This document shows, one piece after another, positions 16,088 to 64,000 of a DNA stretch of 64,000 nucleotides. Each line of letters starts with the position of its first letter. Within the stretch, counting starts at the first letter, position 1. The notes beneath the pieces were generated by a model. That model made no database searches, had not been told where the DNA came from, and was given only the letters and a program-made list of their open reading frames with translations. Origin of the DNA: Henricia sp. BOLD:AAB3569 (lineage: Eukaryota > Echinodermata > Asteroidea > Spinulosida > Echinasteridae); the NCBI GenBank assembly GCA_037783545.1, contig JBBELK010000058.1:2405700-2469699 (forward strand), read 5' to 3'. The position numbers and the translations under genes were made by a program.

Positions 16088-19000
16088 TTATGTGGAGGAC
16101 TGCTTTTCACTCTTCACTGCAGTAAAAGGCTCTTCGCTGTAGTAAGAGGCAGAACCCTTCTTGTCAACATTCCCTTTGATTCTAGTTGAGGAGAGAAGTC
16201 CAGGCCATAGAAACAGCGACAAGAAACGCTTCTGGAGGACTTGGTACATGTCTGTTTTTCTTAAAGAAGCCAAGAGGTCTTCAGGTGGCCCACGAGAAAC
16301 CACACTTTCTGCTGTGCGCTCTGAGGTTCCTCCATGGGAAGTTATCCCTGCCTGATCGGGTTCTCCATGCCCTCTGTTTTTGCTCGCCAAGTAACCACTG
16401 AAACCAACTTTCTGTACTTTTTCATTTTCCAGCCTGTTCCATTCCTTTTTGCGATGCGAGATGAATTTCTGTTGCTGACTTTCCAAATTTTTGCGGTCAA
16501 GCAAAAGAAACACCAGACCCTGAAGTGTTGCGACATTTGGTGGCAGAAGCGCGATGTCTCTGGTATGCAACTTTCTATTTTTGTCTTGTTTTTCCTGTTT
16601 CTTTTGTGACCACCACTGTCCTGTAATTGGAAGTCTAGTTTTTTGGGACGTTTTCGACAGCATCTTTGTCTTGTTGAGCTGGCTTGGTTCTCGTATGCGC
16701 TGGTTTGGTTCTTGCGTGACCTGGTTTGGTTCTTGCGTGAGCTGGTTTGGTTCTTGCGTGAGCTGGTTTGGTTCTTGCGTGAGCTGGTTTGGTTCTTGCG
16801 TGAGCTGGTTTGGTTCTTGCGTGAGCTGGTTCGGTTCTTGTGTAACCTGGGTACCTCTGGTGGGAATCCAGACACTGCAGGTGTTATTGCCAAGAAGACC
16901 ATCCTTGAGAGGTTGAAAGTTATCCTTTGTGAGGATGACATTTGATCCGTCTCTCAGTGACAGACGTGCTAACTGTGAGGGGTTAGCCCCTTGTGCAACT
17001 GCCTCTACTTGTGGAGCAGTGCGGATAAGAAATTGTGGTCGAATTCCTTGTTCAGGTACTGTCTTAGCAGGTGAAGGTGCGCGTGGAGCTTGTGGCTTAG
17101 GAAGTATGGGGGTAAGGTGATTGGGACTAGCACCACCCATTGCTATAGTGGCCAGTGGGATACCGGCTGGCTGCAAATTTGAAATTCCTTGAATTTGAGG
17201 AGTTGGATGTCCTGGCATGGTAGAGCCTGGTGTGAGCTGGAGTACGAGTTGCCCTGTTTGATGGTTTCGTAGCAGAATACACTGCGCCTGCACTGGAGGA
17301 GCGACATTAGTCAGATTTGGATATCGGCCAACATTAGGTAATAAAGGTGGTTGAAAAAGCATCGCATTGGATTGGCTCTGCAATACACTAGCTTGAGGCC
17401 TGGCTTGCAAGCCCAGTTGAACCTGGGGTACAACACAATTCCTTGATGCCATTGTGTTTGTTGTATTCGTCTCATATGGCTTGGATTTTATTCCACGGCG
17501 AAGTTGCAACAACTGTTGTCTAACGGTTAGAGTCGTTGGAGAGGAGCTCTGAATAGAAGGTGCAACAACCTTGCTGCCCGAGGCTTTTAGGTGATTAACC
17601 TCCTTATTTGGTGCTCTTTGTGGGGTACTGATCACTCTTTCAGCATCACCTGTACCACCAGAATGATGAGAAGCATTGGTCAGAATACGTAGTGGACTAC
17701 TAGCATTCTGTTGCCCTCCATGTGGCTGATTTACTGCTCTATGGGGATTTGCTTGTCCTGAACAAGCTTGTGGTCCAGCGGCTGGCGACTTGTTAACGCT
17801 GTTCAAATTTTGAAAGTCAGAAGTCCCATTATTAGTAGAGCGTGGTGGTGGTGGATTTGTTTCCTTGCTTTGCACAGTCTGCTGGGGGCTGGAAATGGAA
17901 CCGCTTGGAGTTGTAGTCATTTCAGTTACCTGACCATTTACCACTGGCTGTTCATTTCGGTTTGGGCCACTGGTCACTTTCTTGGTGCTGGTCAGTTGTT
18001 CTTTATTCTTCTTTGCTTCTACAGTTGTTTTCTTCTGGCCATTTAACTGTTGCTGACCACTCAACTGTTGCTGACCACTCAACTCTTGCTGACCACTCAA
18101 CTCTTGCTGACCACTCAACTCTTGCTGACCACTCAACTCTTGCTGACCACTCAACTCTTGCTGACCTTCTCCCTGTGTGTTGCCTTCCCTGCCTTCTCCC
18201 TGTGTGTTGGTAGTTATTTCTGGTTTCTTCGATTCCTTCTCTGACCCCCCTTCAGCACTGGGCTTTTCATCAGTTTTGCTCCACTTTGCAAGAGATTTTG
18301 TTGCCAGTGCAGTTGTGTACTTCACGTCAATGTCAAACACCTGAAAGGAAAGGTATAATTAACAGAATGCGCTATAAATAGAAGAATACCTTCTGAACAT
18401 GGGTGGCAAAACAATTCACAAAATGCACAAACCAAGCACTTTCCATTTTAAACAATATTTCTTGGTCAGTTCTTTATGAAAGGGATAAATTGTGATCATA
18501 AATCTACATTCTTTTTAATTGGGAATAGTTTCCCCTCTCCCGGTGCAATTTATAATTATGGTATGCCCGGTTCTTTCCTAAGGCACTTCATAGCATGGTT
18601 AGGTAAACTCTGCATTGTACAGCAGACGTCTTAGTCAAAAACCCCAGTGCCGAAATCCCCAGTGTTTTTTATTGCCAGTTTAATGTTACTCATACATGTA
18701 GACCTTTATCACGGTGCGTCCATCTTATGTGTCTTGTTCTCCATAGTACGTGTTGGGTACAAACAATCAGTGCGTCTACGCTACCACGCAAGCGCGATAG
18801 CACGTGTAATCTCCTATTGAGAATCACTGTCCACTGTGCGCACTCTCTTAATTGCGCATCGCCTCTGCCATTGTGATGCACACAATGAATAATTTCAAAA
18901 CAGGACCAAACTATTTTTTTCTGCAAGCTTCGCTTTGGTTACATTTATTCTAATAGGAGAAAAGGGAAGATGGCCGCACAATGATAAATGTCCATAAGAT

Positions 19001-42000: not shown

Positions 42001-45000
42001 CGTACGATTTCTTGGTAGGTCCTCTGCAATTTTCTTGCTGTTTCGTATTTGATGCGTGCCTTGTCCAAATTGTTCTCAACCATTCGAATCGTCTGAAGAA
42101 GGAAAATTAAATAGTGTACATGTAATTAGTGGAGCGTGTCTGCCTGGTTTAGTGGAGCGTGTGTGGTCTAGTGCAGAATCTACTATTATTATTATTAAAA
42201 AGATGGATGCCTTTTTCAACAAATTAAGCATGAATCCAATTGATGTTTTGGAGGGAATGCGGGACGGCATAATTAAATTTTGCCGCGTCTTTCTGGAAAT
42301 ATGTAAGTACAGCCCTCACAATATGCTCAAGCCGTGTTGTTACTCAAGCTGCGAGCATGTTTCCACTGCGAGAATCAACATTAATTGCTTTTGCTGTTGG
42401 GCAACACCATCTTCGTATTTTGTGCGCAAGGCGCGGCAGTTGAAATTACCCAGCATGTTATACCAAAATCCTTCACCGAGCAATTTTTCGTATGTCGTTG
42501 CCCTCCTCGGCAAAACAGCGTTTGAGGCTGTTTCTACACTGCAAAAACTCGAGTGTTTAATTTGATTCTTTCCCCGGTATATATATAAGACAACACCCAT
42601 GGTGTAAATTAACACCAGCATTTGATGTACCTTTTACACCAGGAACCGGTGTTTTTTGTAATACAATTGGTGTCATCCGATCCTCCTCTGGTGTCAATAC
42701 TGAAGACAATTTCGCTTAAAAACAAGACGTTTCACTGTGAAAGGTTCGTTTAGCACAATAATTTTTATTCAATTTATCCGCACTAATTTATCCGTGGTAG
42801 AACGGCAGTATGATCGACAAAATGTCATTGTTCTCATCATGATTTGAGAAAACATCAATACAGACAAATGCATCCCCCTATTCATCCCCCTACTTGTTGT
42901 TGTTGTTGTTGTTGTTGTATATTTTTATGGCATCTTCGGCAACTAAGGCCCTTTATGCCATCAACTATACGGTTTTAGCTTTAACTATACTATATTATCA
43001 ACTTGAGATGACGAAGAAGGAGTTGCAGTTTTAGAAGTGGGAGGAAAACCCCCAGAGAAATGCCCCAGGGGAAAACCCACGCGGTCAAGTAGGGACTGCA
43101 AACCCAATCCACATACACGCCCCGGATTCGAACCCGGGACGCCAGAGGTGAAAGGCGAGGAAAAAACCCGTACGCCAACCCGACCGCCCTGATGTGTGTG
43201 CAAACGTGGGAAAAATTATCAGAAACGCCTGTAGACATTCAAATAGCTGGATTTCAACACCAGAAAAATTTACACCAAGATATTCAATAAGATTTAAATA
43301 ATTTGGTGTTACTTTAACACCAAAATAATCACGTCAAGTTTTACACCAGGCTGGTGTCAAAACGGTAATCGTGCTCAGTAGCAAAACGTCAAATTATTGC
43401 AATAATACTGTATTGTTCTACCTGTCGTAATTTTAAACACAAAAACCTGATTTCAATGGTACATTGTCTATATTATGTATTAGTATAAATAACATGCATG
43501 TATTTAGAAAAAAACGTCACTTGGTTTTGAATCATCTAACCTTGAGATCGTATTGGACGTAGTTGTTATTGCTATTCTCAGCCAGGAGATCAAGTCGAGC
43601 AAGGGCCGTCTGTAACTCATCGATATGAGCTTCTCGCTTCTCGCGTTGTTCCCTCAAGTAGTTCAGCCGTTTCTCTTTCTCGCATACTTTCTGGTCCATT
43701 TCAGCAATAGCATCCTGTAGTAAATTAGAAGAAGTAGTAACAGAAATCCAAAATATGGTTAACATTTCATCGGCTTGAAACATTAAAGGGCCCCTTATTT
43801 GGGATTTTTATAAATGACATCTATGCTATAAAACCAATATACTCAGTTACAATCATAAAAATCCTATTTGGAGCTTGTTTTTGGGGTTAAAACTAGGGTT
43901 TTTAGTTTTTATGCTGATGAAAATATGCATATTCATGACCAAGGTCACGATGTCACAAGAGGCAAACACAGGAAAATCACATTCAACTGTGCACAAAAGA
44001 TTCCACCTTTTTCTCAAACGTCCTGGAACTTTTGTAATCCATGACTGTTTGAGTTTGTTCTACATGTTTCCTGTTGTAAGCCATGATAAAACTGGGGGAG
44101 AAAACCACAGCAATTTGCCACAAGTCGAACTTAAATTCTTATGTTTTTTCTTAACTTTTCCCTTCTGTCTTCCTTGCGTGATGCACTCCAAACAGCGCCC
44201 TCTTTCTGTGGTTTATTGCAATGAAATCTCCAAAGTTGAAAAAGGCTACCTTTTATTGATTTTACATCCAAACGAACAATAGCATGTCTTGTTGAACAAG
44301 TAATCCATCATATGAAGCAAAGATTAGGCAAAAAGTTGTTTAGCATGTCAGAGGCCCTTTAAACCCAAATCCAAGACCTTTCTTGAAAGTAAGTAAAAAC
44401 CAAGAACTTGAGGGTTTAATCATTAAAATTTAATTCATCGTTTGGTAGTTCTGGTTTTACGGTAGGTTACTCTGGCAGTTCTGCTTACCTCGGCAGTTTT
44501 TCTGCGTAGAGCCAAATTTTCCTCTCTGCACGAAACGAGTGCTTCGTTGATAACTTGTTCGTCACCCTGCAAAAATGCACGCATAAATTCGGGGCATAAA
44601 TACTGGGCACGAATATACGTTAAAAAGTGAAAAAGAAACCAAATTATATTCTGACCGGAAGATCGATTAGGCTGAGAAATGTAATATATTTTATTGGTAT
44701 GAACACCTCTTGTGGCAAGGCTGACTGCAAGGGCCTCCATAAGAGCCGCTGAGGCAAAGTGCGCCACTCTGCCACTTGCCTGAAATGCCTCTCTGAGCTC
44801 TTGAATTTCTAAGGCTGTTTGGGAGAAGCTTACATTGGTCAGATCATCACACGCAGGAGGTTCAATCATGCAGGTTGAAAACCCAACAAATTGCTTTTCT
44901 GAGAGTCCAGGATTCTCCCAACAAAAATAATGTCAATTTTCGTTACTGTGTGAATCACTTTGTTCAATCACCGAAGCGGAACAGTCTTGAAAGCGATTCC

Positions 45001-47224: not shown

Positions 47225-47692
47225 CCAGGGACGTTTCAGCTGGGGCGGTCGGTTTTGGCGTACGGGTTCTTTCCTCGCCTTTCACCTCTGGCGTCCCGAG
47301 TTCGAATCCGGGGCGTGTATGTGGATTGGGTTTGCAGTCCCTACTTGACCGCGTGCGATTTTTTTTACCGTACCACATATTCGCTATGGGGCTTCATCGA
47401 GGTGTCTGATTGGTGCATTGTAAATGAATATTCATATTCATATATTAATAAATACAATTTTTATTTCTAGTGGTTAAGACGTAGTACTATCAGTCGAGAG
47501 ATTGCAGGTTCGAATCTCCTTTGAGTCGTATTAATTTTGTTCACTATTAATTGAGGAAAGAGAGTGGTATGGTGTTGGGTTATGTTGAGGTAGTTATCGA
47601 CAAACCACAGTATGCAACATATGCATAGGGGTTAAAGCATAAAGGGCCTTAGTTGCCGAAGATGCCATACAATATACAACAACAACAACGTT
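47225..47692 (+). mobile_element. SINE family S6, copy interrupted by other insertions
   Basis: The head GGGGCGGTCGGTTTTGGCG with B box GAGTTCGAATCCGGGG runs to about 47360. The 3' end GGGCCTTAGTTGCCGAAGAT with CAA tail is at 47642-47692. Between them is unrelated DNA with a separate tRNA-like fragment (GTGGTTAAGACGTAG..AGGTTCGAATCTCC, 47470-47527). Confidence 0.65.
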
Positions 47693-47789: not shown

Positions 47790-48267
47790 ACTCCTCAAAA
47801 TTTTTTCGGAAAGTCAAGTTTGACTGAGACGATTTATCTCTTGTTACTAAACTATTTCCCTTGAATTTGGTATCATTGGAAAGCCCTGTTATTCCTCTTT
47901 AATGTAATGTGTCATTTGATATGATTAATCAATTGGGGGATGTCGGAATACAGGGGTGGGTGGAAAGTGAAATGTCACAAAATTCACTGCTATTGTCATG
48001 CAGTGCATTCCCTTTTGCTCGGAGGATGGGAATATGTCAATGCACTTTTTGACAATAGCAATGCATTTTGTGACATTTCACTTTACACCCGCCCCCCGTA
48101 TTCAGCTGTGCTGCACATCCCCCAATTGCTTAATCATAACAAATGACACATCATCGTAAAGAGGAATAACAGGGCTTTTCAATGATATAAAATTCAAGGA
48201 AAATTATTTTGCAACAAGAGAGAAATCGTCAGTCAAACTTGACTTTCCGAACTTTTTTTGAGGAGTT
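47790..48267. mobile_element. 478-bp foldback element, nearly complete palindrome
   Basis: Begins ACTCCTCAAAA.TTTTTTCGG and ends, inverted, CCGAACTTTTTTTGAGGAGT. Matching arms continue to the centre near 48030: AAGTCAAGTTTGACTGA, CAGGGCTTTCC-like, GGAATAACAGGG, AATGACACAT, CCCCCAATTG, TGAAATGTCACAAAAT and TTGCTATTGTCA all occur in both orientations. There is no transposase. A transcript would form one long hairpin. Confidence 0.85.
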
Positions 48268-48834: not shown

Positions 48835-48866
48835 GAACTAGTCTGTGAACCGAAATAGACTAGTTC
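48835..48866. repeat. Perfect 10-bp inverted repeat at the edge of the satellite
   Basis: GAACTAGTCT (48835-48844) and AGACTAGTTC (48857-48866) with a 12-base loop lie immediately before the first monomer (48868). The motif is not part of the monomer. Confidence 0.6.
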
Positions 48867-48867
48867 T

Positions 48868-51800
48868 AGGAATTTGGTCAAAGTGTGGTCCAAACGTCGG
48901 CAAATTTGGAAGTCAAGAAATTTTCCGACGAACTTCAAATTTTGCATGCTCCAAACAGTCTATATTCCGCACTTGTCCTGAAAAATTGACAGACTTTCGC
49001 AGGGAAATGGCCGAGAAATTTCAGAGTTTAGGGAAAACTGGGTTGGGGCTTCCTGACTGCTCCGCTAACCGTGGCTGTCTGTACACTCCTCTTTGGTGTA
49101 CTCCTGACTCGTGCGCATGATCAGTCCTTTGGACGGTCGTTGACACACCCCAGTTTGGGACAGGAATTTGGTCAAAGTGTGGTCCAAACGTCGGCAAATT
49201 TGGAAGTCAAGAAATTTTCCGACGAACTTCAAATTTTGCATGCTCCAAACAGTCTATATTCCGCACTTGTCCTGAAAAATTGACAGACTTTCGCCAGGAA
49301 ATGGCAGAGAAATTTCAGAGTTTAGGGAAAACTGGGTTGGGGCTTCCTGACTGCTCCCGCAACCCGTGGCTGTCTGTACACTCCTCTTTGGTGTACTCCT
49401 GACTCGTGCGCATGCTCAGTCCTTCGGACTGTCGTTGACACGGCCCAGTTTGGGACGGGAATTTGGTCAAAGTGTGGTCCAAACGTCGGCAAATTTGGAG
49501 GTCGAAAAATTTTCCGACGAACTTCAAATTTTGCATGCTCCAAGCACTCTATATTGCGCACTTGTCCTAAAAAATTGACAGACTTTCGCCGGGAAATGGC
49601 AGAGAAATTTCAGAGTTTAGGGAAAACTGGGTTGGGGCTTCCTGACTGCTCCCGCAACCCGTGGCTGTCTGTACACTCCTCTTTGGTGTACTCCTGACTC
49701 GTGCGCATGCTCAGTCCTTCGGACTGTCGTTGACACGGCCCAGTTTGGGACGGGAATTTGGTCAAAGTGTGGTCCAAACGTCGGCAAATTTGGAGGTCGA
49801 AACATTTTCCGACGAACTTCAAATTTTGCATGCTCCAAGCACTCTATATTGCGCACTTGTCCTAAAAAAATTGACAGACTTTCGCCGGGAAATGGCAGAG
49901 AAATTTCAGAGTTTAGGGAAAACTGGGTTGGGGCTTCCTGACTGCTCCCGCAACCCGTGGCTGTCTGTACACTCCTCTTTGGTGTACTCCTGACTCGTGC
50001 GCATGCTCAGTCCTTCGGACTGTCGTTGACACGGCCCAGTTTGGGACGGGAATTTGGTCAAAGTGTGGTCCAAACGTCGGCAAATTTGGAGGTCGAAAAA
50101 TTTTCCGACGAACTTCAAATTTTGCATGCTCCAAGCACTCTATATTGCGCACTTGTCCTAAAAAATTGACAGACTTTCGCCGGGAAATGGCAGAGAAATT
50201 TCAGAGTTTAGGGAAAACTGGGTTGGGGCTTCCTGACTGCTCCCGCAACCCGTGGCTGTCTGTACACTCCTCTTTGGTGTACTCCTGACTCGTGCGCATG
50301 CTCAGTCCTTCGGACTGTCGTTGACACGGCCCAGTTTGGGACGGGAATTTGGTCAAAGTGTGGTCCAAACGTCGGCAAATTTGGAGGTCGAAAAATTTTC
50401 CGACGAACTTCAAATTTTGCATGCTCCAAGCACTCTATATTGCGCACTTGTCCTAAAAAATTGACAGACTTTCGCCGGGAAATGGCAGAGAAATTTCAGA
50501 GTTTAGGGAAAACTGGGTTGGGGCTTCCTGACTGCTCCCGCAACCCGTGGCTGTCTGTACACTCCTCTTTGGTGTACTCCTGACTCGTGCGCATGCTCAG
50601 TCCTTCGGACTGTCGTTGACACGGCCCAGTTTGGGACGGGAATTTGGTCAAAGTGTGGTCCAAACGTCGGCAAATTTGGAGGTCGAAAAATTTTCCGACG
50701 AACTTCAAATTTTGCATGCTCCAAGCACTCTATATTGCGCACTTGTCCTAAAAAATTGACAGACTTTCGCCGGGAAATGGCAGAGAAATTTCAGAGTTTA
50801 GGGAAAACTGGGTTGGGGCTTCCTGACTGCTCCCGCAACCCGTGGCTGTCTGTACACTCCTCTTTGGTGTACTCCTGACTCGTGCGCATGCTCAGTCCTT
50901 CGGACTGTCGTTGACACGGCCCAGTTTGGGACGGGAATTTGGTCAAAGTGTGGTCCAAACGTCGGCAAATTTGGAGGTCGAAAAATTTTCCGACGAACTT
51001 CAAATTTTGCATGCTCCAAGCACTCTATATTGCGCACTTGTCCTAAAAAATTGACAGACTTTCGCCGGGAAATGGCAGAGAAATTTCAGAGTTTAGGGAA
51101 AACTGGGTTGGGGCTTCCTGACTGCTCCCGCAACCCGTGGCTGTCTGTACACTCCTCTTTGGTGTACTCCTGACTCGTGCGCATGCTCAGTCCTTCGGAC
51201 TGTCGTTGACACGGCCCAGTTTGGGACGGGAATTTGGTCAAAGTGTGGTCCAAACGTCGGCAAATTTGGAGGTCGAAAAATTTTCCGACGAACTTCAAAT
51301 TTTGCATGCTCCAAGCACTCTATATTGCGCACTTGTCCTAAAAAATTGACAGACTTTCGCCGGGAAATGGCAGAGAAATTTCAGAGTTTAGGGAAAACTG
51401 GGTTGGGGCTTCCTGACTGCTCCCGCAACCCGTGGCTGTCTGTACACTCCTCTTTGGTGTACTCCTGACTCGTGCGCATGCTCAGTCCTTCGGACTGTCG
51501 TTGACACGGCCCAGTTTGGGACGGGAATTTGGTCAAAGTGTGGTCCAAACGTCGGCAAATTTGGAGGTCGAAAAATTTTCCGACGAACTTCAAATTTTGC
51601 ATGCTCCAAGCACTCTATATTGCGCACTTGTCCTAAAAAATTGACAGACTTTCGCCGGGAAATGGCAGAGAAATTTCAGAGTTTAGGGAAAACTGGGTTG
51701 GGGCTTCCTGACTGCTCCCGCAACCCGTGGCTGTCTGTACACTCCTCTTTGGTGTACTCCTGACTCGTGCGCATGCTCAGTCCTTCGGACTGTCGTTGAC

Positions 51801-54800
51801 ACGGCCCAGTTTGGGACGGGAATTTGGTCAAAGTGTGGTCCAAACGTCGGCAAATTTGGAGGTCGAAAAATTTTCCGACGAACTTCAAATTTTGCATGCT
51901 CCAAGCACTCTATATTGCGCACTTGTCCTAAAAAATTGACAGACTTTCGCCGGGAAATGGCAGAGAAATTTCAGAGTTTAGGGAAAACTGGGTTGGGGCT
52001 TCCTGACTGCTCCCGCAACCCGTGGCTGTCTGTACACTCCTCTTTGGTGTACTCCTGACTCGTGCGCATGCTCAGTCCTTCGGACTGTCGTTGACACGGC
52101 CCAGTTTGGGACGGGAATTTGGTCAAAGTGTGGTCCAAACGTCGACAAATTTGGAGGTCGAAAAATTTTCCGACGAACTTCAAATTTTGCATGCTCCAAG
52201 CACTCTATATTGCGCACTTGTCCTAAAAAATTGACAGACTTTCGCCGGGAAATGGCAGAGAAATTTCAGAGTTTAGGGAAAACTGGGTTGGGGCTTCCTG
52301 ACTGCTCCCGCAACCCGTGGCTGTCTGTACACTCCTCTTTGGTGTACTCCTGACTCGTGCGCATGCTCAGTCCTTCGGACTGTCGTTGACACGGCCCAGT
52401 TTGGGACGGGAATTTGGTCAAAGTGTGGTCCAAACGTCGGCAAATTTGGAGGTCGAAAAATTTTCCGACGAACTTCAAATTTTGCATGCTCCAATCACTC
52501 TATATTGCGCACTTGTCCTAAAAAATTGACAGACTTTCGCCGGGAAATTTCAGAGTTTAGGGAAAACTGGGTTGGGGCTTCCTGACTGCTCCCGCAACCC
52601 GTGGCTGTCTGTACACTCCTCTTTGGTGTACTCCTGACTCGTGCGCATGCTCAGTCCTTCGGACTGTCGTTGACACGGCCCAGTTTGGGACGGGAATTTG
52701 GTCAAAGTGTGGTCCAAACGTCGGCAAATTTGGAGGTCGAAAAATTTTCCGACGAACTTCAAATTTTGCATGCTCCAAGCACTCTATATTGCGCACTTGT
52801 TCTAAAAAATTGACAGACTTTCGCCGGGAAATGGCAGAGAAATTTCAGAGTTTAGGGAAAACTGGGTTGGGGCTTCCTGACTGCTCCCGCAACCCGTGGC
52901 TGTCTGTACACTCCTCTTTGGTGTACTCCTGACTCGTGCGCATGCTCAGTCCTTCGGACTGTCGTTGACACGGCCCAGTTTGGGACGGGAATTTGGTCAA
53001 AGTGTGGTCCAAACGTCGGCAAATTTGGAGGTCGAAAAATTTTCCGACGAACTTCAAAATTTGCATGCTCCAAGCACTCTGTATTGCGCACTTGTCCTAA
53101 AAAATTGACAGACTTTCGCCGGGAAATGGCAGAGAAATTTCAGAGTTTAGGGAAAACTGGGTTGGGGCTTCCTGACTGCTCCCGCAACCCGTGGCTGTCT
53201 GTACACTCCTCTTTGGTGTACTCCTGACTCGTGCGCATGCTCAGTCCTTCGGACTGTCGTTGACACGGCCCAGTTTGGGACGGGAATTTGGTCAAAGTGT
53301 GGTCCAAACGTCGGCAAATTTGGAGGTCGAAAAATTTTCCGACGAACTTCAAATTTTGCATGCTCCAAGCACTCTATATTGCGCACTTGTCCTAAAAAAT
53401 TGACAGACTTTCGCCGGGAAATGGCAGAGAAATTTCAGAGTTTAGGGAAAACTGGGTTGGGGCTTCCTGACTGCTCCCGCAACCCGTGGCTGTCTGTACA
53501 CTCCTCTTTGGTGTACTCCTGACTCGTGCGCATGCTCAGTCCTTCGGACTGTCGTTGACACGGCCCAGTTTGGGACGGGAATTTGGTCAAAGTGTGGTCC
53601 AAACGTCGGCAAATTTGGAGGTCGAAAAATTTTCCGACGAACTTCAAATTTTGCATGCTCCAATCACTCTATATTGCGCACTTGTCCTAAAAAATTGACA
53701 GACTTTCGCCGGGAAATGGCAGAGAAATTTCAGAGTTTAGGGAAAACTGGGTTGGGGCTTCCTGACTGCTCCCGCAACCCGTGGCTGTCTGTACACTCCT
53801 CTTTGGTGTACTCCTGACTCGTGCGCATGCTCAGTCCTTCGGACTGTCGTTGACACGGCCCAGTTTGGGACGGGATTTTTGTCAAAGTGTGGTCCAAACG
53901 TCGGCAAATTTGGAGGTCGAAAAATGTTCCGACGAACTTCAAATTTTGCATGCTCCAAGCACTCTATATTGCGCACTTGTCCTAAAAAATTGACAGACTT
54001 TCGCCGGGAAATGGCAGAGAAATTTCAGAGTTTAGGAAAAAAGGGGTTGGAGCTTCCTGGATGCTCCCGCAACCTGTGGCTGTCTGTACACACCTCTTTG
54101 GTGTACTCCTGACTCGTGCGCATGCTCAGTCCTTCGGACTGTCGTTGACACGGCCCAGTTTGGGACGGGATTTTGGTCAAAGTGTGGTCCAAACGTCGGC
54201 AAATTTGGAGGTCGAAAAATGTTCCGACGAACTTCAAATTTTGCATGCTCCAAGCACTCTATATTGCGCACTTGTCCTAAAAAATTGACAGACTTTCGCC
54301 GGGAAATGGCAGAGAAATTTCAGAGTTTAGGAAAAAAGGGGTTGGAGCTTCCTGGATGCTCCCGCAACCTGTGGCTGTCTGTACACACCTCTTTGGTGTA
54401 CTCCTGACTCGTGCGCATGCTCAGTCCTTCGGACTGTCGTTGACACGGCCCAGTTTGGGACGGGATTTTGGTCAAAGTGTGGTCCAAACGTCGGCAAATT
54501 TGGAGGTCGAAAAATGTTCCGACGAACTTCAAATTTTGCATGCTCCAAGCACTCTATATTGCGCACTTGTCCTAAAAAATTGACAGACTTTCGCCGGGAA
54601 ATGGCAGAGAAATTTCAGAGTTTAGGAAAAAAGGGGTTGGAGCTTCCTGGATGCTCCCGCAACCTGTGGCTGTCTGTACACACCTCTTTGGTGTACTCCT
54701 GACTCGTGCGCATGCTCAGTCATTCGGACTGTCGTTGACACGGCCCAGTTTGGGACGGGATTTGGTCAAAGTGTGGTCCAAACGTCGGCAAATTTGGAGG

Positions 54801-57800
54801 TCGAAAAATGTTCCGACGAACTTCAAATTTTGCATGCTCCAAGCACTCTATATTGCGCACTTGTCCTAAAAAATTGACAGACTTTCGCCGGGAAATGGCA
54901 GAGAAATTTCAGAGTTTAGGAAAAAAGGGGTTGGAGCTTCCTGGATGCTCCCGCAACCTGTGGCTGTCTGTACACACCTCTTTGGTGTACTCCTGACTCG
55001 TGCGCATGCTCAGTCCTTCGGACTGTCGTTGACACGGCCCAGTTTGGGACGGGATTTTGGTCAAAGTGTGGTCCAAACGTCGGCAAGTTTGGAGGTCGAA
55101 AAATGTTCCGACGAACTTCAAATTTTGCATGCTCCAAGCACTCTATATTGCGCACTTGTCCTAAAAAAATGACAGACTTTCGCCGGGAAATGGCAGAGAA
55201 ATTTCAGAGTTTAGGAAAAAAGGGGTTGGAGCTTCCTGGATGCTCCCGCAACCTGTGGCTGTCTGTACACACCTCTTTGGTGTACTCCTGACTCGTGCGC
55301 ATGCTCAGTCCTTCGGACTGTCGTTGACACGGCCCAGTTTGGGACGGGATTTTGGTCAAAGTGTGGTCCAAACGTCGGCAAATTTGGAGGTCGAAAAATG
55401 TTCCGACGAACTTCAATTTTGCATGCTCCAAGCACTCTATATTGCGCACTTGTCCTAAAAAATTGACAGACTTTCGCCGGGAAATGGCAGAGAAATTTCA
55501 GAGTTTAGGAAAAAAGGGTTGGAGCTTCCTGGATGCTCCCGCAACCTGTGGCTGTCTGTACACACCTCTTTGGTGTACTCCTGACTCGTGCGCATGCTCA
55601 GTCCTTCGGACTGTCGTTGACACGGCCCAGTTTGGGACGGGATTTTGGTCAAAGTGTGGTCCAAACGTCGGCAAATTTGGAGGTCGAAAAATGTTCCGAC
55701 GAACTTCAAATTTTGCATGCTCCAAGCACTCTATATTGCGCACTTGTCCTAAAAAATTGACAGACTTTCGCCGGGAAATGGCAGAGAAATTTCAGAGTTT
55801 AGGAAAAAAGGGGTTGGAGCTTCCTGGATGCTCCCGCAACCTGTGGCTGTCTGTACACACCTCTTTGGTGTACTCCTGACTCGTGCGCATGCTCAGTCCT
55901 TCGGACTGTCGTTGACACGGCCCAGTTTGGGACGGGATTTTGGTCAAAGTGTGGTCCAAACGTCGGCAAATTTGGAGGTCGAAAAATGTTCCGACGAACT
56001 TCAAATTTTGCATGCTCCAAGCACTCTATATTGCGCACTTGTCCTAAAAAATTGACAGACTTTCGCCGGGAAATGGCAGAGAAATTTCAGAGTTTAGGAA
56101 AAAAGGGGTTGGAGCTTCCTGGATGCTCCCGCAACCTGTGGCTGTCTGTACACACCTCTTTGGTGTACTCCTGACTCGTGCGCATGCTCAGTCCTTCGGA
56201 CTGTCGTTGACACGGCCCAGTTTGGGACGGGATTTTGGTCAAAGTGTGGTCCAAACGTCGGCAAGTTTGGAGGTCGAAAAATGTTCCGACGAACTTCAAA
56301 TTTTGCATGCTCCAAGCACTCTATATTGCGCACTTGTCCTAAAAAAATGACAGACTTTCGCCGGGAAATGGCAGAGAAATTTCAGAGTTTAGGAAAAAAG
56401 GGGGTTGGAGCTTCCTGGATGCTCCCGCAACCTGTGGCTGTCTGTACACACCTCTTTGGTGTACTCCTGACTCGTGCGCATGCTCAGTCCTTCGGACTGT
56501 CGTTGACACGGCCCAGTTTGGGACGGGATTTTGGTCAAAGTGTGGTCCAAACGTCGGCAAATTTGGAGGTCGAAAATGTTCCGACGAACTTCAAATTTTG
56601 CATGCTCCAAGCACTCTATATTGCGCACTTGTCCTAAAAAATTGACAGACTTTCGCCGGGAAATGGCAGAGAAATTTCAGAGTTTAGGAAAAAAGGGGTT
56701 GGAGCTTCCTGGATGCTCCCGCAACCTGTGGCTGTCTGTACACACCTCTTTGGTGTACTCCTGACTCGTGCGCATGCTCAGTCCTTCGGACTGTCGTTGA
56801 CACGGCCCAGTTTGGGACGGGATTTTGGTCAAAGTGTGGTCCAAACGTCGGCAAATTTGGAGGTCGAAAAATGTTCCGACGAACTTCAAATTTTGCATGC
56901 TCCAAGCACTCTATATTGCGCACTTGTCCTAAAAAATTGACAGACTTTCGCCGGGAAATGGCAGAGAAATTTCAGAGTTTAGGAAAAAAGGGGTTGGAGC
57001 TTCCTGGATGCTCCCGCAACCTGTGGCTGTCTGTACACACCTCTTTGGTGTACTCCTGACTCGTGCGCATGCTCAGTCATTCGGACTGTCGTTGACACGG
57101 CCCAGTTTGGGACGGAATTTTGGTCAAAGTGTGGTCCAAACGTCGGCAAATTTGGAGGTCGAAAAATGTTCCGACGAACTTCAAATTTTGCATGCTCCAA
57201 GCACTCTATATTGCGCACTTGTCCTAAAAAATTGACAGACTTTCGCCGGGAAATGGCAGAGAAATTTCAGAGTTTAGGAAAAAAGGGGTTGGAGCTTCCT
57301 GGATGCTCCCGCAACCTGTGGCTGTCTGTACACACCTCTTTGGTGTACTCCTGACTCGTGCGCATGCTCAGTCCTTCGGACTGTCGTTGACACGGCCCAG
57401 TTTGGGACGGGATTTTGGTCAAAGTGTGGTCCAAACGTCGGCAAATTTGGAGGTCGAAAAATGTTCCGACGAACTTCAAATTTTGCATGCTCCAAGCACT
57501 CTATATTGCGCACTTGTCCTAAAAAATTGACAGACTTTCGCCGGGAAATGGCAGAGAAATTTCAGAGTTTAGGAAAAAAGGGGTTGGAGCTTCCTGGATG
57601 CTCCCGCAACCTGTGGCTGTCTGTACACACCTCTTTGGTGTACTCCTGACTCGTGCGCATGCTCAGTCCTTCGGACTGTCGTTGACACGGCCCAGTTTGG
57701 GACGGGATTTTGGTCAAAGTGTGGTCCAAACGTCGGCAAGTTTGGAGGTCGAAAAATGTTCCGACGAACTTCAAATTTTGCATGCTCCAAGCACTCTATA

Positions 57801-60800
57801 TTGCGCACTTGTCCTAAAAAAATGACAGACTTTCGCCGGGAAATGGCAGAGAAATTTCAGAGTTTAGGAAAAAAGGGGTTGGAGCTTCCTGGATGCTCCC
57901 GCAACCTGTGGCTGTCTGTACACACCTCTTTGGTGTACTCCTGACTCGTGCGCATGCTCAGTCCTTCGGACTGTCGTTGACACGGCCCAGTTTGGGACGG
58001 GATTTTGGTCAAAGTGTGGTCCAAACGTCGGCAAATTTGGAGGTCGAAAAATGTTCCGACGAACTTCAAATTTTGCATGCTCCAAGCACTCTATATTGCG
58101 CACTTGTCCTAAAAAATTGACAGACTTTCGCCGGGAAATGGCAGAGAAATTTCAGAGTTTAGGAAAAAAGGGGGTTGGAGCTTCCTGGATGCTCCCGCAA
58201 CCTGTGGCTGTCTGTACACACCTCTTTGGTGTACTCCTGACTCGTGCGCATGCTCAGTCCTTCGGACTGTCGTTGACACGGCCCAGTTTGGGACGGGATT
58301 TTGGTCAAAGTGTGGTCCAAACGTCGGCAAATTTGGAGGTCGAAAAATGTTCCGACGAACTTCAAATTTTGCATGCTCCAAGCACTCTATATTGCGCACT
58401 TGTCCTAAAAAATTGACAGACTTTCGCCGGGAAATGGCAGAGAAATTTCAGAGTTTAGGAAAAAAGGGGTTGGAGCTTCCTGGATGCTCCCGCAACCTGT
58501 GGCTGTCTGTACACACCTCTTTGGTGTACTCCTGACTCGTGCGCATGCTCAGTCATTCGGACTGTCGTTGACACGGCCCAGTTTGGGACGGATTTTGGTC
58601 AAAGTGTGGTCCAAACGTCGGCAAATTTGGAGGTCGAAAAATGTTCCGACGAACTTCAAATTTTGCATGCTCCAAGCACTCTATATTGCGCACTTGTCCT
58701 AAAAAATTGACAGACTTTCGCCGGGAAATGGCAGAGAAATTTCAGAGTTTAGGAAAAAAGGGGTTGGAGCTTCCTGGATGCTCCCGCAACCTGTGGCTGT
58801 CTGTACACACCTCTTTGGTGTACTCCTGACTCGTGCGCATGCTCAGTCCTTCGGACTGTCGTTGACACGGCCCAGTTTGGGACGGGATTTTGGTCAAAGT
58901 GTGGTCCAAACGTCGGCAAGTTTGGAGGTCGAAAAATGTTCCGACGAACTTCAAATTTTGCATGCTCCAAGCACTCTATATTGCGCACTTGTCCTAAAAA
59001 AATGACAGACTTTCGCCGGGAAATGGCAGAGAAATTTCAGAGTTTAGGAAAAAAGGGGTTGGAGCTTCCTGGATGCTCCCGCAACCTGTGGCTGTCTGTA
59101 CACACCTCTTTGGTGTACTCCTGACTCGTGCGCATGCTCAGTCCTTCGGACTGTCGTTGACACGGCCCAGTTTGGGACGGGATTTTGGTCAAAGTGTGGT
59201 CCAAACGTCGGCAAATTTGGAGGTCGAAAAATGTTCCGACGAACTTCAAATTTTGCATGCTCCAAGCACTCTATATTGCGCACTTGTCCTAAAAAATTGA
59301 CAGACTTTCGCCGGGAAATGGCAGAGAAATTTCAGAGTTTAGGAAAAAAGGGGTTGGAGCTTCCTGGATGCTCCCGCAACCTGTGGCTGTCTGTACACAC
59401 CTCTTTGGTGTACTCCTGACTCGTGCGCATGCTCAGTCCTTCGGACTGTCGTTGACACGGCCCAGTTTGGGACGGGATTTTGGTCAAAGTGTGGTCCAAA
59501 CGTCGGCAAATTTGGAGGTCGAAAAATGTTCCGACGAACTTCAAATTTTGCATGCTCCAAGCACTCTGTATTGCGCACTTGTCCTAAAAAATTGACAGAC
59601 TTTCGCCGGGAAATGGCAGAGAAATTTCAGAGTTTAGGAAAAAAGGGGTTGGAGCTTCCTGGATGCTCCCGCAACCTGTGGCTGTCTGTACACACCTCTT
59701 TGGTGTACTCCTGACTCGTGCGCATGCTCAGTCCTTCGGACTGTCGTTGACACGGCCCAGTTTGGGACGGGATTTTGGTCAAAGTGTGGTCCAAACGTCG
59801 GCAAATTTGGAGGTCGAAAAATGTTCCGACGAACTTCAAATTTTGCATGCTCCAAGCACTCTATATTGCGCACTTGTCCTAAAAAATTGACAGACTTTCG
59901 CCGGGAAATGGCAGAGAAATTTCAGAGTTTAGGAAAAAAGGGGTTGGAGCTTCCTGGATGCTCCCGCAACCTGTGGCTGTCTGTACACACCTCTTTGGTG
60001 TACTCCTGACTCGTGCGCATGCTCAGTCCTTCGGACTGTCGTTGACACGGCCCAGTTTGGGACGGGATTTTGGTCAAAGTGTGGTCCAAACGTCGGCAAA
60101 TTTGGAGGTCGAAAAATGTTCCGACGAACTTCAAATTTTGCATGCTCCAAGCACTCTATATTGCGCACTTGTCCTAAAAAATTGACAGACTTTCGCCGGG
60201 AAATGGCAGAGAAATTTCAGAGTTTAGGAAAAAAGGGGTTGGAGCTTCCTGGATGCTCCCGCAACCTGTGGCTGTCTGTACACACCTCTTTGGTGTACTC
60301 CTGACTCGTGCGCATGCTCAGTCCTTCGGACTGTCGTTGACACGGCCCAGTTTGGGACGGGATTTTGGTCAAAGTGTGGTCCAAACGTCGGCAAATTTGG
60401 AGGTCGAAAAATGTTCCGACGAACTTCAAATTTTGCATGCTCCAAGCACTCTATATTGCGCACTTGTCCTAAAAAAATGACAGACTTTCGCCGGGAAATG
60501 GCAGAGAAATTTCAGAGTTTAGGAAAAAAGGGGTTGGAGCTTCCTGGATGCTCCCGCAACCTGTGGCTGTCTGTACACACCTCTTTGGTGTACTCCTGAC
60601 TCGTGCGCATGCTCAGTCCTTCGGACTGTCGTTGACACGGCCCAGTTTGGGACGGGATTTTGGTCAAAGTGTGGTCCAAACGTCGGCAAATTTGGAGGTC
60701 GAAAAATGTTCCGACGAACTTCAAATTTTGCATGCTCCAAGCACTCTATATTGCGCACTTGTCCTAAAAAAATGACAGACTTTCGCCGGGAAATGGCAGA

Positions 60801-63800
60801 GAAATTTCAGAGTTTAGGAAAAAAGGGGTTGGAGCTTCCTGGATGCTCCCGCAACCTGTGGCTGTCTGTACACACCTCTTTGGTGTACTCCTGACTCGTG
60901 CGCATGCTCAGTCCTTCGGACTGTCGTTGACACGGCCCAGTTTGGGACGGGATTTTGGTCAAAGTGTGGTCCAAACGTCGGCAAATTTGGAGGTCGAAAA
61001 ATGTTCCGACGAACTTCAAATTTTGCATGCTCCAAGCACTCTATATTGCGCACTTGTCCTAAAATATTGACAGACTTTCGCCGGGAAATGGCAGAGAAAT
61101 TTCAGAGTTTAGGAAAAAAGGGGTTGGAGCTTCCTGGATGCTCCCGCAACCTGTGGCTGTCTGTACACACCTCTTTGGTGTACTCCTGACTCGTGCGCAT
61201 GCTCAGTCCTTCGGACTGTCGTTGACACGGCCCAGTTTGGGACGGGATTTTGGTCAAAGTGTGGTCCAAACGTCGGCAAATTTGGAGGTCGAAAAATGTC
61301 CGACGAACTTCAAATTTTGCATGCTCCAAGCACTCTATATTGCGCACTTGTCCTAAAAAATTGACAGACTTTCGCCGGGAAATGGCAGAGAAATTTCAGA
61401 GTTAGGAAAAAAGGGGTTGGAGCTTCCTGGATGCTCCCGCAACCTGTGGCTGTCTGTACACACCTCTTTGGTGTACTCCTGACTCGTGCGCATGCTCAGT
61501 CCTTCGGACTGTCGTTGACACGGCCAGTTTGGGACGGGATTTTGGTCAAAGTGTGGTCCAAACGTCGGCAAATTTGGAGGTCGAAAAATGTTCCGACGAA
61601 CTTCAAATTTTGCATGCTCCAAGCACTCTATATTGCGCACTTGTCCTAAAAAATTGACAGACTTTCGCCGGGAAATGGCAGAGAAATTTCAGAGTTTAGG
61701 AAAAAAGGGGTTGGAGCTTCCTGGATGCTCCCGCAACCTGTGGCTGTCTGTACACACCTCTTTGGTGTACTCCTGACTCGTGCGCATGCTCAGTCCTTCG
61801 GACTGTCGTTGACACGGCCCAGTTTGGGACGGGATTTTGGTCAAAGTGTGGTCCAAACGTCGGCAAATTTGGAGGTCGAAAAATGTTCCGACGAACTTCA
61901 AATTTTGCATGCTCCAAGCACTCTATATTGCGCACTTGTCCTAAAAAATTGACAGACTTTCGCCGGGAAATGGCAGAGAAATTTCAGAGTTTAGGAAAAA
62001 AGGGTTGGAGCTTCCTGGATGCTCCCGCAACCTGTGGCTGTCTGTACACACCTCTTTGGTGTACTCCTGACTCGTGCGCATGCTCAGTCCTTCGGACTGT
62101 CGTTGACACGGCCCAGTTTGGGACGGGATTTTGGTCAAAGTGTGGTCCAAACGTCGGCAAATTTGGAGGTCGAAAAATGTTCCGACGAACTTCAAATTTT
62201 GCATGCTCCAAGCACTCTATATTGCGCACTTGTCCTAAAAAATTGACAGACTTTCGCCGGGAAATGGCAGAGAAATTTCAGAGTTTAGGAAAAAAGGGGT
62301 TGGAGCTTCCTGGATGCTCCCGCAACCTGTGGCTGTCTGTACACACCTCTTTGGTGTACTCCTGACTCGTGCGCATGCTCAGTCCTTCGGACTGTCGTTG
62401 ACACGGCCCAGTTTGGGACGGGATTTTGGTCAAAGTGTGGTCCAAACGTCGGCAAATTTGGAGGTCGAAAAATGTTCCGACGAACTTCAAATTTTGCATG
62501 CTCCAAGCACTCTATATTGCGCACTTGTCCTAAAAAATTGACAGACTTTCGCCGGGAAATGGCAGAGAAATTTCAGAGTTTAGGAAAAAAGGGGTTGGAG
62601 CTTCCTGGATGCTCCCGCAACCTGTGGCTGTCTGTACACACCTCTTTGGTGTACTCCTGACTCGTGCGCATGCTCAGTCCTTCGGACTGTCGTTGACACG
62701 GCCCAGTTTGGGACGGGATTTTGGTCAAAGTGTGGTCCAAACGTCGGCAAATTTGGAGGTCGAAAAATGTTCCGACGAACTTCAAATTTTGCATGCTCCA
62801 AGCACTCTATATTGCGCACTTGTCCTAAAAAATTGACAGACTTTCGCCGGGAAATGGCAGAGAAATTTCAGAGTTTAGGAAAAAAGGGGTTGGAGCTTTC
62901 TGGATGCTCCCGCAACCTGTGGCTGTCTGTACACACCTCTTTGGTGTACTCCTGACTCGTGCGCATGCTCAGTCCTTCGGACTGTCGTTGACACGGCCCA
63001 GTTTGGGACGGGATTTTGGTCAAAGTGTGGTCCAAACGTCGGCAAATTTGGAGGTCGAAAAATGTTCCGACGAACTTCAAATTTTGCATGCTCCAAGCAC
63101 TCTATATTGCGCACTTGTCCTAAAAAATTGACAGACTTTCGCCGGGAAATGGCAGAGAAATTTCAGAGTTTAGGAAAAAAGGGGTTGGAGCTTCCTGGAT
63201 GCTCCCGCAACCTGTGGCTGTCTGTACACACCTCTTTGGTGTACTCCTGACTCGTGCGCATGCTCAGTCCTTCGGACTGTCGTTGACACGGCCCAGTTTG
63301 GGACGGGATTTTGGTCAAAGTGTGGTCCAAACGTCGGCAAATTTGGAGGTCGAAAAATGTTCCGACGAACTTCAAATTTTGCATGCTCCAAGCACTCTAT
63401 ATTGCGCACTTGTCCTAAAAAATTGACAGACTTTCGCCGGGAAATGGCAGAGAAATTTCAGAGTTTAGGAAAAAAGGGGTTGGAGCTTCCTGGATGCTCC
63501 CGCAACCTGTGGCTGTCTGTACACACCTCTTTGGTGTACTCCTGACTCGTGCGAATGCTCAGTCCTTCGGACTGTCGTTGACACGGCCCAGTTTGGGACG
63601 GGATTTTGGTCAAAGTGTGGTCCAAACGTCGGCAAATTTGGAGGTCGAAAAATGTTCCGACGAACTTCAAATTTTGCATGCTCCAAGCACTCTATATTGC
63701 GCACTTGTCCTAAAAAATTTGACAGACTTTCGCCGGGAAATGGCAGAGAAATTTCAAGTTTAGGAAAAAAGGGGTTGGAGCTTCCTGGATGCTCCCGCAA

Positions 63801-64000
63801 CCTGTGGCTGTCTGTACACACCTCTTTGGTGTACTCCTGACTCGTTGCGAATGCTCAGTCCTTCGGACTGTCGTTGACACGGCCCAGTTTGGGACGGGAT
63901 TTTGGTCAAAGTGTGGTCCAAACGTCGGCAAATTTGGAGGTCGAAAAATGATTCCGACGAACTTCAAATTTTGCATGCTCCAAGCACTCTATATTGCGCA
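48868..64000. repeat. Satellite array, 295-bp monomer, about 51 copies, open at the right edge
   Basis: Head-to-tail monomers with a 295-bp period (anchor GGTCAAAGTGTGGTCC). Two diverged monomers open the array (48868-49455), then 15 near-identical monomers of subfamily A (49456-53872), then about 34 of subfamily B (53873 on). One A monomer is 284 bp because of an 11-bp deletion near 52545. Each monomer contains CTATATTGCGCAC, two GCATGC sites and a 6-bp hairpin CAGTCC..GGACTG. No monomer matches a 5S, snRNA or tRNA gene that I know. Overlapping frames of 62-81 codons recur on both strands only because the DNA is homogeneous. Confidence 0.97.
53873..64000. repeat. Satellite subfamily B segment
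   Basis: Differs from subfamily A at about ten fixed positions per monomer, including GGGATTTTGG for GGGAATTTGG, AAAATGTTCC for AAAATTTTCC, an AGGAAAAAAGGGGTTGGAG block for AGGGAAAACTGGGTTGGGG, GGATGCTCC for GACTGCTCC, and ACACACCTC for ACACTCCTC. Within the segment most monomers are identical or differ by one or two bases. Confidence 0.9.

What the first reader, a model, noticed from the sequence alone, without database searches (positions are those of the whole stretch)
48868..64000. Large homogeneous 295-bp satellite not matching any repeat class known to me
About 51 head-to-tail monomers fill the last quarter of the window and run past its edge, so the true array is larger. Near-identity within subfamilies implies recent amplification or strong homogenisation. 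It begins about 3 kb upstream of ODAD3, so it is not buried in gene-poor sequence. It could be centromeric or pericentromeric, an interstitial expansion, or a variable-number locus.
Basis: partly seen in the sequence, partly recalled or inferred. Interest (0 to 1): 0.75.

Follow-up and report, generated by a model that had tools for sequence, protein, structure and literature searches.

The report
Sea star's dominant satellite DNA superfamily
The repeat is real: it is one array of a family of tandem repeats that makes up about a fifth of a sea star's assembled genome, in several unit lengths that share a common core, and it matters as a candidate for the heterochromatin or centromere DNA of starfish.

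Summary
Confirmed: 51 complete head-to-tail ~295-bp units and a 100-bp partial fill 48,869-64,000. The window's right edge is the contig's last base. The host is a sea star by mitochondrial gene order and code. This is no local oddity: probes count 312,290 copies of the 295-297-bp family, 157,449 of a related 273-bp family and 45,350 of a related 205-bp family, about 145 Mb or 19.5% of the 740.7-Mb assembly. A shared-core probe gives 475,125, within 1.2% of the first two summed. Of 24 sampled contigs under 200 kb, 20 are satellite at the sampled point; of six larger, one. The families share a ~160-bp core and differ in their tails. The array is layered E-B-A from the edge inwards, B being intermediate: newer core, mostly older tail. 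The array shows no Rfam match, RNA-fold signal, CENP-B box or higher-order repeat, and no carrier transposon was found. Ordinary in kind, exceptional in amount; (peri)centromeric placement is inferred, not shown.

The parts
48869..64000 (+). satellite array: 51 complete ~295-bp units and a 100-bp partial unit, cut by the contig end
   Evidence: TRF; unit cutting and alignment; contig end
48873..49461 (+). edge units u01-u02 (variant E), the most diverged of the array by substitutions (28 and 18 differences from the majority)
   Evidence: an exact 30-mer of E occurs 7,636 + 7,111 times genome-wide
49462..53876 (+). units u03-u17, subfamily B: A-like core with E-like tail
   Evidence: a B tail probe (<=1 mismatch) counts 4,613 genome-wide
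53877..63900 (+). units u18-u51, subfamily A, 0-4 differences from consensus
   Evidence: an A tail probe (<=1 mismatch) counts 89,388 genome-wide
63901..64000 (+). partial unit u52, cut by the contig end
54172..54330 (+). core (positions 1-159) of a consensus A unit, the part shared with the 273- and 205-bp satellites
   Evidence: alignments
54331..54466 (+). tail (positions 160-295) of the same unit, different in length and sequence between families

Best explanation
This is one array of the main satellite DNA superfamily of a sea star. Monomers consist of a shared core of about 160 bp and a tail of about 45, 115 or 136-139 bp, giving related satellites of 205, 273 and 295-297 bp. Shown by calls: copy number, many sites, a layered array with diverged edge units, an intermediate subfamily, and small interstitial arrays. 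Inferred: arrays grow and are homogenised by unequal exchange and gene conversion, so that interiors become uniform while edges can keep old variants, and fragments captured in rearrangements seed new sites. Inferred with less certainty: the long arrays form constitutive, probably pericentromeric or centromeric, heterochromatin, where the unit acts as a non-coding packaging sequence.
For: Counts with reversed-pattern controls of 0: 312,290, 157,449, 475,125 for the shared core, 45,350 for the 205-bp relative. 21 of 30 contigs sampled by number are satellite at the sampled point: 6 type A, 7 of the 297-bp type C, 8 of the 273-bp type. C-type slices of six other contigs match the C405 consensus at 99.3-100%. 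E-B-A layering: B equals A at 8 of 9 variable sites in positions 39-130 and E at 9 of 9 in 161-295 (Fisher p = 0.0004), and with the 273-bp type as outgroup the shared A/B core state is the newer one at 7 of those 8 core sites. Of ten array edges read, five have clearly diverged end units (window, C3 left, both ends of the small C3 array, C30). 3 of 20 ends of ten large contigs are satellite, as are the right ends of C2 and C58.
Against: Nothing here places the arrays on chromosomes or shows heterochromatin. The edge gradient is absent at three of ten edges (C3 right, C7, C16), slight at C2 and uninformative at C46. CpG is not depleted relative to the rest of the window (observed/expected 0.87 in the array, 0.83 outside). 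No CENP-B box beyond shuffles and no higher-order repeat. Short arrays lie in ordinary sequence, so the family is not confined to one compartment.
Confidence: 0.8

Rival explanations
1. The repeats are carried and spread by a transposon (a Helentron-like element with central repeats, or a LINE with repeats in its 3' UTR).
For: At two loci about 2.5 E-like units begin 17 bp after the stop of an ORF that looks to me (by recall) like the C-terminal end of a LINE reverse transcriptase. Four flanks (window, C30, both C3 arrays) share a dispersed repeat, and a 126-bp segment is shared by the C2 flank and a place just inside the small C3 array; how common these are elsewhere was not measured. Such carriage is known in oyster (PMC7492417, abstract and outline).
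Against: The ORF-satellite junction occurs only twice in the genome, and the two loci share 1,153 of 1,155 bases, so they are one event copied or two haplotypes. The ORF has no significant Pfam hit. The shared flank segments lie at different distances from the edges, about 40 bp to 1.5 kb, and one of these repeats also occurs in the window 5.7 kb before the array. Arrays start and stop at different unit positions. A start near position 222 seen at two loci gave only 8 exact hits genome-wide.
Confidence: 0.08
2. Subtelomeric satellite, lying next to chromosome ends.
For: Five contig ends examined lie in satellite (C58, C2, C7, C30, C50), as would be expected near any hard-to-assemble region.
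Against: At the one telomere examined, C70, slices from 8 to 40 kb hold TTAGGG-type repeat and then other sequence: 0 of 8 slices are satellite. C1905 shows TTAGGG or N in the 7 slices, as far as printed. One end cannot speak for others.
Confidence: 0.1
3. A tandem non-coding RNA gene cluster.
For: Unit size and homogeneity resemble RNA gene repeats.
Against: No Rfam hit in the array at gathering score, and one chance-level hit, E 7.5, in a 1,001-base part of it searched at E up to 10. RNA fold z-scores of -0.66 and -0.90 for one unit. No box A, box B, TATA or Sm consensus among those scanned in one unit (motifs recalled). Hundreds of thousands of copies.
Confidence: 0.02
4. Assembly artefact or contamination.
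For: The extreme end of C2 has units full of small indels, and C46 and C412 may be two haplotypes of one place.
Against: Arrays join non-satellite sequence at ten edges read (at C16 the neighbour is the 205-bp satellite), and the families are found on 21 of 30 sampled contigs.
Confidence: 0.02

Closest known systems
Tribolium madens major and minor satellites (PMC13081366; abstract and outline seen)
   Same: A very large genome share from one ancestral element that gave rise to distinct related satellites.
   Different: T. madens: ~110-bp element, 38% of the genome, likely (peri)centromeric on all chromosomes, macro-dyad symmetries. Here: 205-297 bp, about 19.5% of the assembly, at least three related lengths, chromosomal place unknown, large inverted symmetry not tested.
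Meloidogyne satDNA library with conserved motifs (PMC3694981; abstract and outline seen)
   Same: Divergent satellites that share conserved segments and rearrange.
   Different: There the shared parts are two motifs, one CENP-B box-like; here it is one ~160-bp core and no CENP-B box above chance.
Crassostrea gigas Helentron (HINE) central repeats (PMC7492417; abstract and outline seen)
   Same: Short satellite-like arrays dispersed in the genome of a marine invertebrate.
   Different: There arrays sit in definable mobile elements; here no recurring element ends were found on the loci read.
Satellites in a published sea star genome (Asterias amurensis, PMC11090083; passages seen)
   Same: Same animal class; a satellite class is annotated, given as 1.80%.
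   Different: The share here is about ten times larger, though methods differ and the passage leaves the denominator open. No sequence of that satellite was compared.

Membership tests
Satellite DNA | long head-to-tail tandem arrays | tested here: met
   15.1 kb here; hits at unit spacing over about 27 kb on C2 and C14 and 30 kb on C25 (capped lists, some gaps)
Satellite DNA | high copy number at many sites | tested here: met
Satellite DNA | concerted evolution: uniform arrays, local subfamilies | tested here: met
Satellite DNA | non-coding | tested here: inconclusive
   295 is not a multiple of 3 and the longest stop-to-stop frame in the array is 221 codons; no transcript data
Satellite DNA | heterochromatic location | not testable with these tools
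   needs FISH or chromatin data
Centromeric satellite | CENP-A association | not testable with these tools
   needs ChIP or CUT&RUN
Centromeric satellite | CENP-B box (a feature of some; consensus recalled) | tested here: not met
   best 7 of 9 fixed bases in A, B and C and 6 of 9 in the 273-bp family; 118-199 of 200 shuffles do as well
Centromeric satellite | higher-order repeats (a feature of some) | tested here: not met
   180 of 1000 permutations reach the best lag score in subfamily A; tested on the window's 34 A units only
Helentron/HINE central repeats | constant flanking element ends | tested here: not met
   on few loci; some flanks share dispersed repeats at varying distance
Subtelomeric satellite | adjacent to TTAGGG arrays | tested here: inconclusive
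   0 of 8 slices at the single C70 telomere
Rfam RNA gene repeat | covariance model match | tested here: not met

The most novel reading that the evidence does not exclude
The ~160-bp, nucleosome-sized core is a functional module of the echinoderm centromere or its heterochromatin, kept across satellites of 205, 273 and 295-297 bp while tails are replaced block-wise at its border. The genome would thus hold a library of satellites with one recognised core and exchangeable tails.
Probability: 0.2. Interest if true: 0.72.

Novelty: new member of a known kind. Interest (0 to 1): 0.5.

Why it matters
About a fifth of this assembly is one satellite superfamily, against 1.80% satellite given for another sea star (PMC11090083; methods and perhaps denominators differ). 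It would explain why contigs such as C58 and C2 break where they do (inference). It gives a concrete candidate for sea star (peri)centromeric DNA; I saw no paper on that in the capped listings of my searches. It also offers a natural case of one core carried by satellites of several lengths, with an intermediate subfamily lying between older and newer units at an array edge.

Tried and rejected
RNA gene: rejected. CENP-B box and higher-order repeats: no support. Transposon carriage: a LINE-like junction looked promising but is limited to two near-identical loci; a possible preferred start near position 222 gave 8 hits. I planned a control search at another position and left it out because 8 is negligible beside 312,290. 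A first DNA search with the monomer returned nothing because the tool skips very common words; this is not evidence of rarity.

B as a recombinant of A and E: my first reading, and still written so in the notebook. Dropped as the only reading: with the 273-bp type as outgroup, A and B share the newer state at 7 of 8 core sites, and at the 9 tail sites B and E carry the outgroup's state at 5, A does at 2, and 2 are unclear. A lineage E to B to A therefore suffices. The clustering of changes (p = 0.0004) still suggests block-wise change by conversion, or recombination. B is also not confined to such borders: the capped list shows a run of B hits on C148 over 31 kb and two on C7 amid A-type hits.

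Constraint on the core. For: between-subfamily differences lean to the tail (core:tail A/B 1:9, A/C 6:22, B/C 7:18, E/273 18:27, C/273 25:32) against 53:32 polymorphic columns within twelve unit sets; A/273 is 25:27 and not significant, p = 0.11. Against: E and B differ 8:0 in the core (p = 0.047 in the opposite sense). The pairs are not independent. So constraint is unproven. Units of L005 (many indels), L105-L109, L111-L113 and L115 were not in the polymorphism count.

Literature: eight paper searches were made. The capped listings (titles and starts of abstracts) showed me no echinoderm satellite of this kind; one search searched six k-mers and found none; one search supplied the nematode paper. 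Passages were read in PMC10153287, PMC10394057, PMC11090083 and PMC7947835; term searches in the main text of PMC4053949 and PMC11480709 found nothing; abstracts and outlines were read of PMC3694981, PMC13081366 and PMC7492417.

Full report
Observation. TRF reports one array at 48,869-64,000, period 295, 51.3 copies, 99% matches. Cutting at an anchor and aligning gives 51 complete units and a 100-bp partial; 37 of 50 anchor spacings are exactly 295. The array is richer in G+C (about 49%) than the rest of the window (41%), with unremarkable CpG. The 51 core motifs found with up to 3 mismatches all lie on the + strand.

Context. The window is G000:C58:2405700-2469699 in an assembly of 740,731,340 bases and 2,104 contigs; C58 has 2,469,699 bases, so the array ends the contig. 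The first 10 kb of C58 hold no match. Contig C2104 (16,221 bases, first 8,000 read) is a mitochondrial genome: with table 9 it gives long COX1, ND1 and ND2 frames (named by recall), and the order is tRNA-Phe, small rRNA (+), large rRNA (-), ND2 (-), ND1 (-), a tRNA block, COX1 (+). Compared with echinoids, asteroids have ND1 and 16S interchanged (PMC7947835, passages read), so the host is a sea star. The species was not identified.

Abundance. A 28-base probe with up to 3 mismatches finds 151,676 + 160,614 = 312,290 copies, with 0 for the reversed control. At 295.5 bp this is 92.3 Mb or 12.5%. Sampling 20 contigs by number at bases 10,001-10,300 showed satellite in 14, and a second sample of 10 in 7. 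Together: 20 of 24 contigs under 200 kb and 1 of 6 larger ones. The 21 fall into three types: A (6), a 297-bp type C (7) and a 273-bp type (8). A probe for the 273-bp type with up to 2 mismatches counts 157,449 (43.0 Mb, 5.8%). A probe in the shared core counts 475,125, within 1.2% of the two summed. A 205-bp relative found beside an A array on C16 counts 45,350, about 9.3 Mb. The total is about 145 Mb, 19.5% of the assembly. Tail probes with up to 1 mismatch give A 89,388, C 149,068, B 4,613, together 78% of the 312,290. These are assembly counts; collapsed or haplotype-duplicated arrays would bias them.

Anatomy. The 295-297-bp and 273-bp consensus units are 70-75% identical overall. In the multiple alignment, substitutions between A and the 273-bp type are 25 of 158 in the core and 38 of 114 in the tail, with 23 of 24 gapped columns in the tail; a pairwise alignment gives 25 of 158 and 27 of 112. 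The 205-bp unit aligns to about positions 1-165 and not to the tail: local scores of 50, 47 and 46 against E, the 273-bp type and A, with shuffle maxima of 23, 21 and 26 in 300 shuffles each. So the three families share a core of about 160 bp and differ in their tails.

Array history. From the edge inwards the units are E (2), B (15), A (34). Of 18 sites that vary among the three, B equals A at 8 of 9 in positions 39-130 and equals E at 9 of 9 in positions 161-295 (Fisher p = 0.0004). With the 273-bp type as outgroup, A and B share the newer state at 7 of the 8 core sites, and at the 9 tail sites B and E carry the outgroup's state at 5, A does at 2 and 2 are unclear. B is thus intermediate: a newer core with a mostly older tail. 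The order on the DNA matches a succession E, B, A with older units at the edge; that each step changed one block points to conversion of segments, or B may be a recombinant. Ten array edges were read, taken from the first places listed, not at random. End units are clearly diverged at five (window; C3 left, 82.6 and 86.5% to A before 94%; both ends of the small C3 array, about 85% to E; C30, about 91% to E, followed 15-16 kb further in by C-type units). They are not at C3 right, C7 and C16; the drop at C2 is slight (94% against 98%), and C46 has E-type units at the edge and inside. Within subfamily A no higher-order repeat is supported.

Dispersal. C3 carries an array of about 5.3 kb and a second of about 3 kb on the opposite strand, some 624 kb apart, with none in the sampled slices between. 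C58 has further B-type hits near 885-887 kb. A 143-bp fragment on C2 sits between two copies of a 131-bp flank at 98.5% identity, which suggests repair of a staggered break (inference). Array edges fall at different unit positions, against a fixed mobile unit; but four flanks share a dispersed repeat at varying distances, and a 126-bp segment is common to the C2 flank and a place just inside the small C3 array, with unmeasured background. Two near-identical loci join E-like units to a LINE-like ORF end, but that junction occurs nowhere else with up to 3 mismatches.

Placement. At the one telomere sampled (C70), none of 8 slices between 8 and 40 kb is satellite. Of 20 ends of ten large contigs, 3 are satellite. 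Together with the size of the family this is most easily read as blocks of (peri)centromeric or other constitutive heterochromatin plus small interstitial arrays; the first half is inference.

Selection on the core. Most subfamily pairs put differences in the tail while within-array polymorphism does not, but E against B goes the other way. I therefore hold the constrained-core reading at 0.20.

Known or new. The kind, satellite DNA, is well known. The nearest published parallels I met are T. madens and Meloidogyne, of which I read abstracts and outlines only. Six k-mers of the monomer were found in no held paper. Dfam, Repbase and other sea star genomes were not available, so a prior description elsewhere cannot be excluded.

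Noticed in passing
window 47790-48266: A 477-bp foldback element with inverted arms of 116 nt (87%), 57 nt (88%) and 38 nt (89%), about 0.6 kb before the array.
   Followed up: partly
window 48835-48866: A perfect 10-bp inverted repeat (seen by eye) ends 2 bases before the array's first base; not listed by the repeat finder and not tested against chance.
   Followed up: no
window 43072-43189 and 47243-47361: Two copies (95%, opposite strands) of a dispersed repeat, with relatives in the C3 and C30 array flanks; its background frequency was not measured.
   Followed up: partly
L003:802-1198: A 143-bp satellite fragment between two copies of a 131-bp flank (98.5% identical): looks like break repair with captured satellite.
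   Followed up: partly
L112 and L113: An ORF end resembling a LINE reverse transcriptase C-terminus (by recall), followed after 17 bp by about 2.5 satellite units; only two genomic copies, nearly identical.
   Followed up: yes
L110:1-1331: A 205-bp satellite sharing only the core, abutting an A-type array abruptly; 45,350 probe hits genome-wide.
   Followed up: yes
C3:2820489-2822259: Two unit spacings of about 430 instead of 294 in the small C3 array suggest insertions of about 136 bp; one place shares 126 bp at 98% with the C2 array flank.
   Followed up: no
L096 (C355:10001-10300): An unrelated short-period tandem repeat in a 189-kb contig.
   Followed up: no
window 16088-18358: A 756-codon frame on the - strand with in-frame tandem repeats of 7 and 6 codons.
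   Followed up: no
L005: Units at the extreme end of contig C2 carry many small indels, as in poorly polished contig ends.
   Followed up: no
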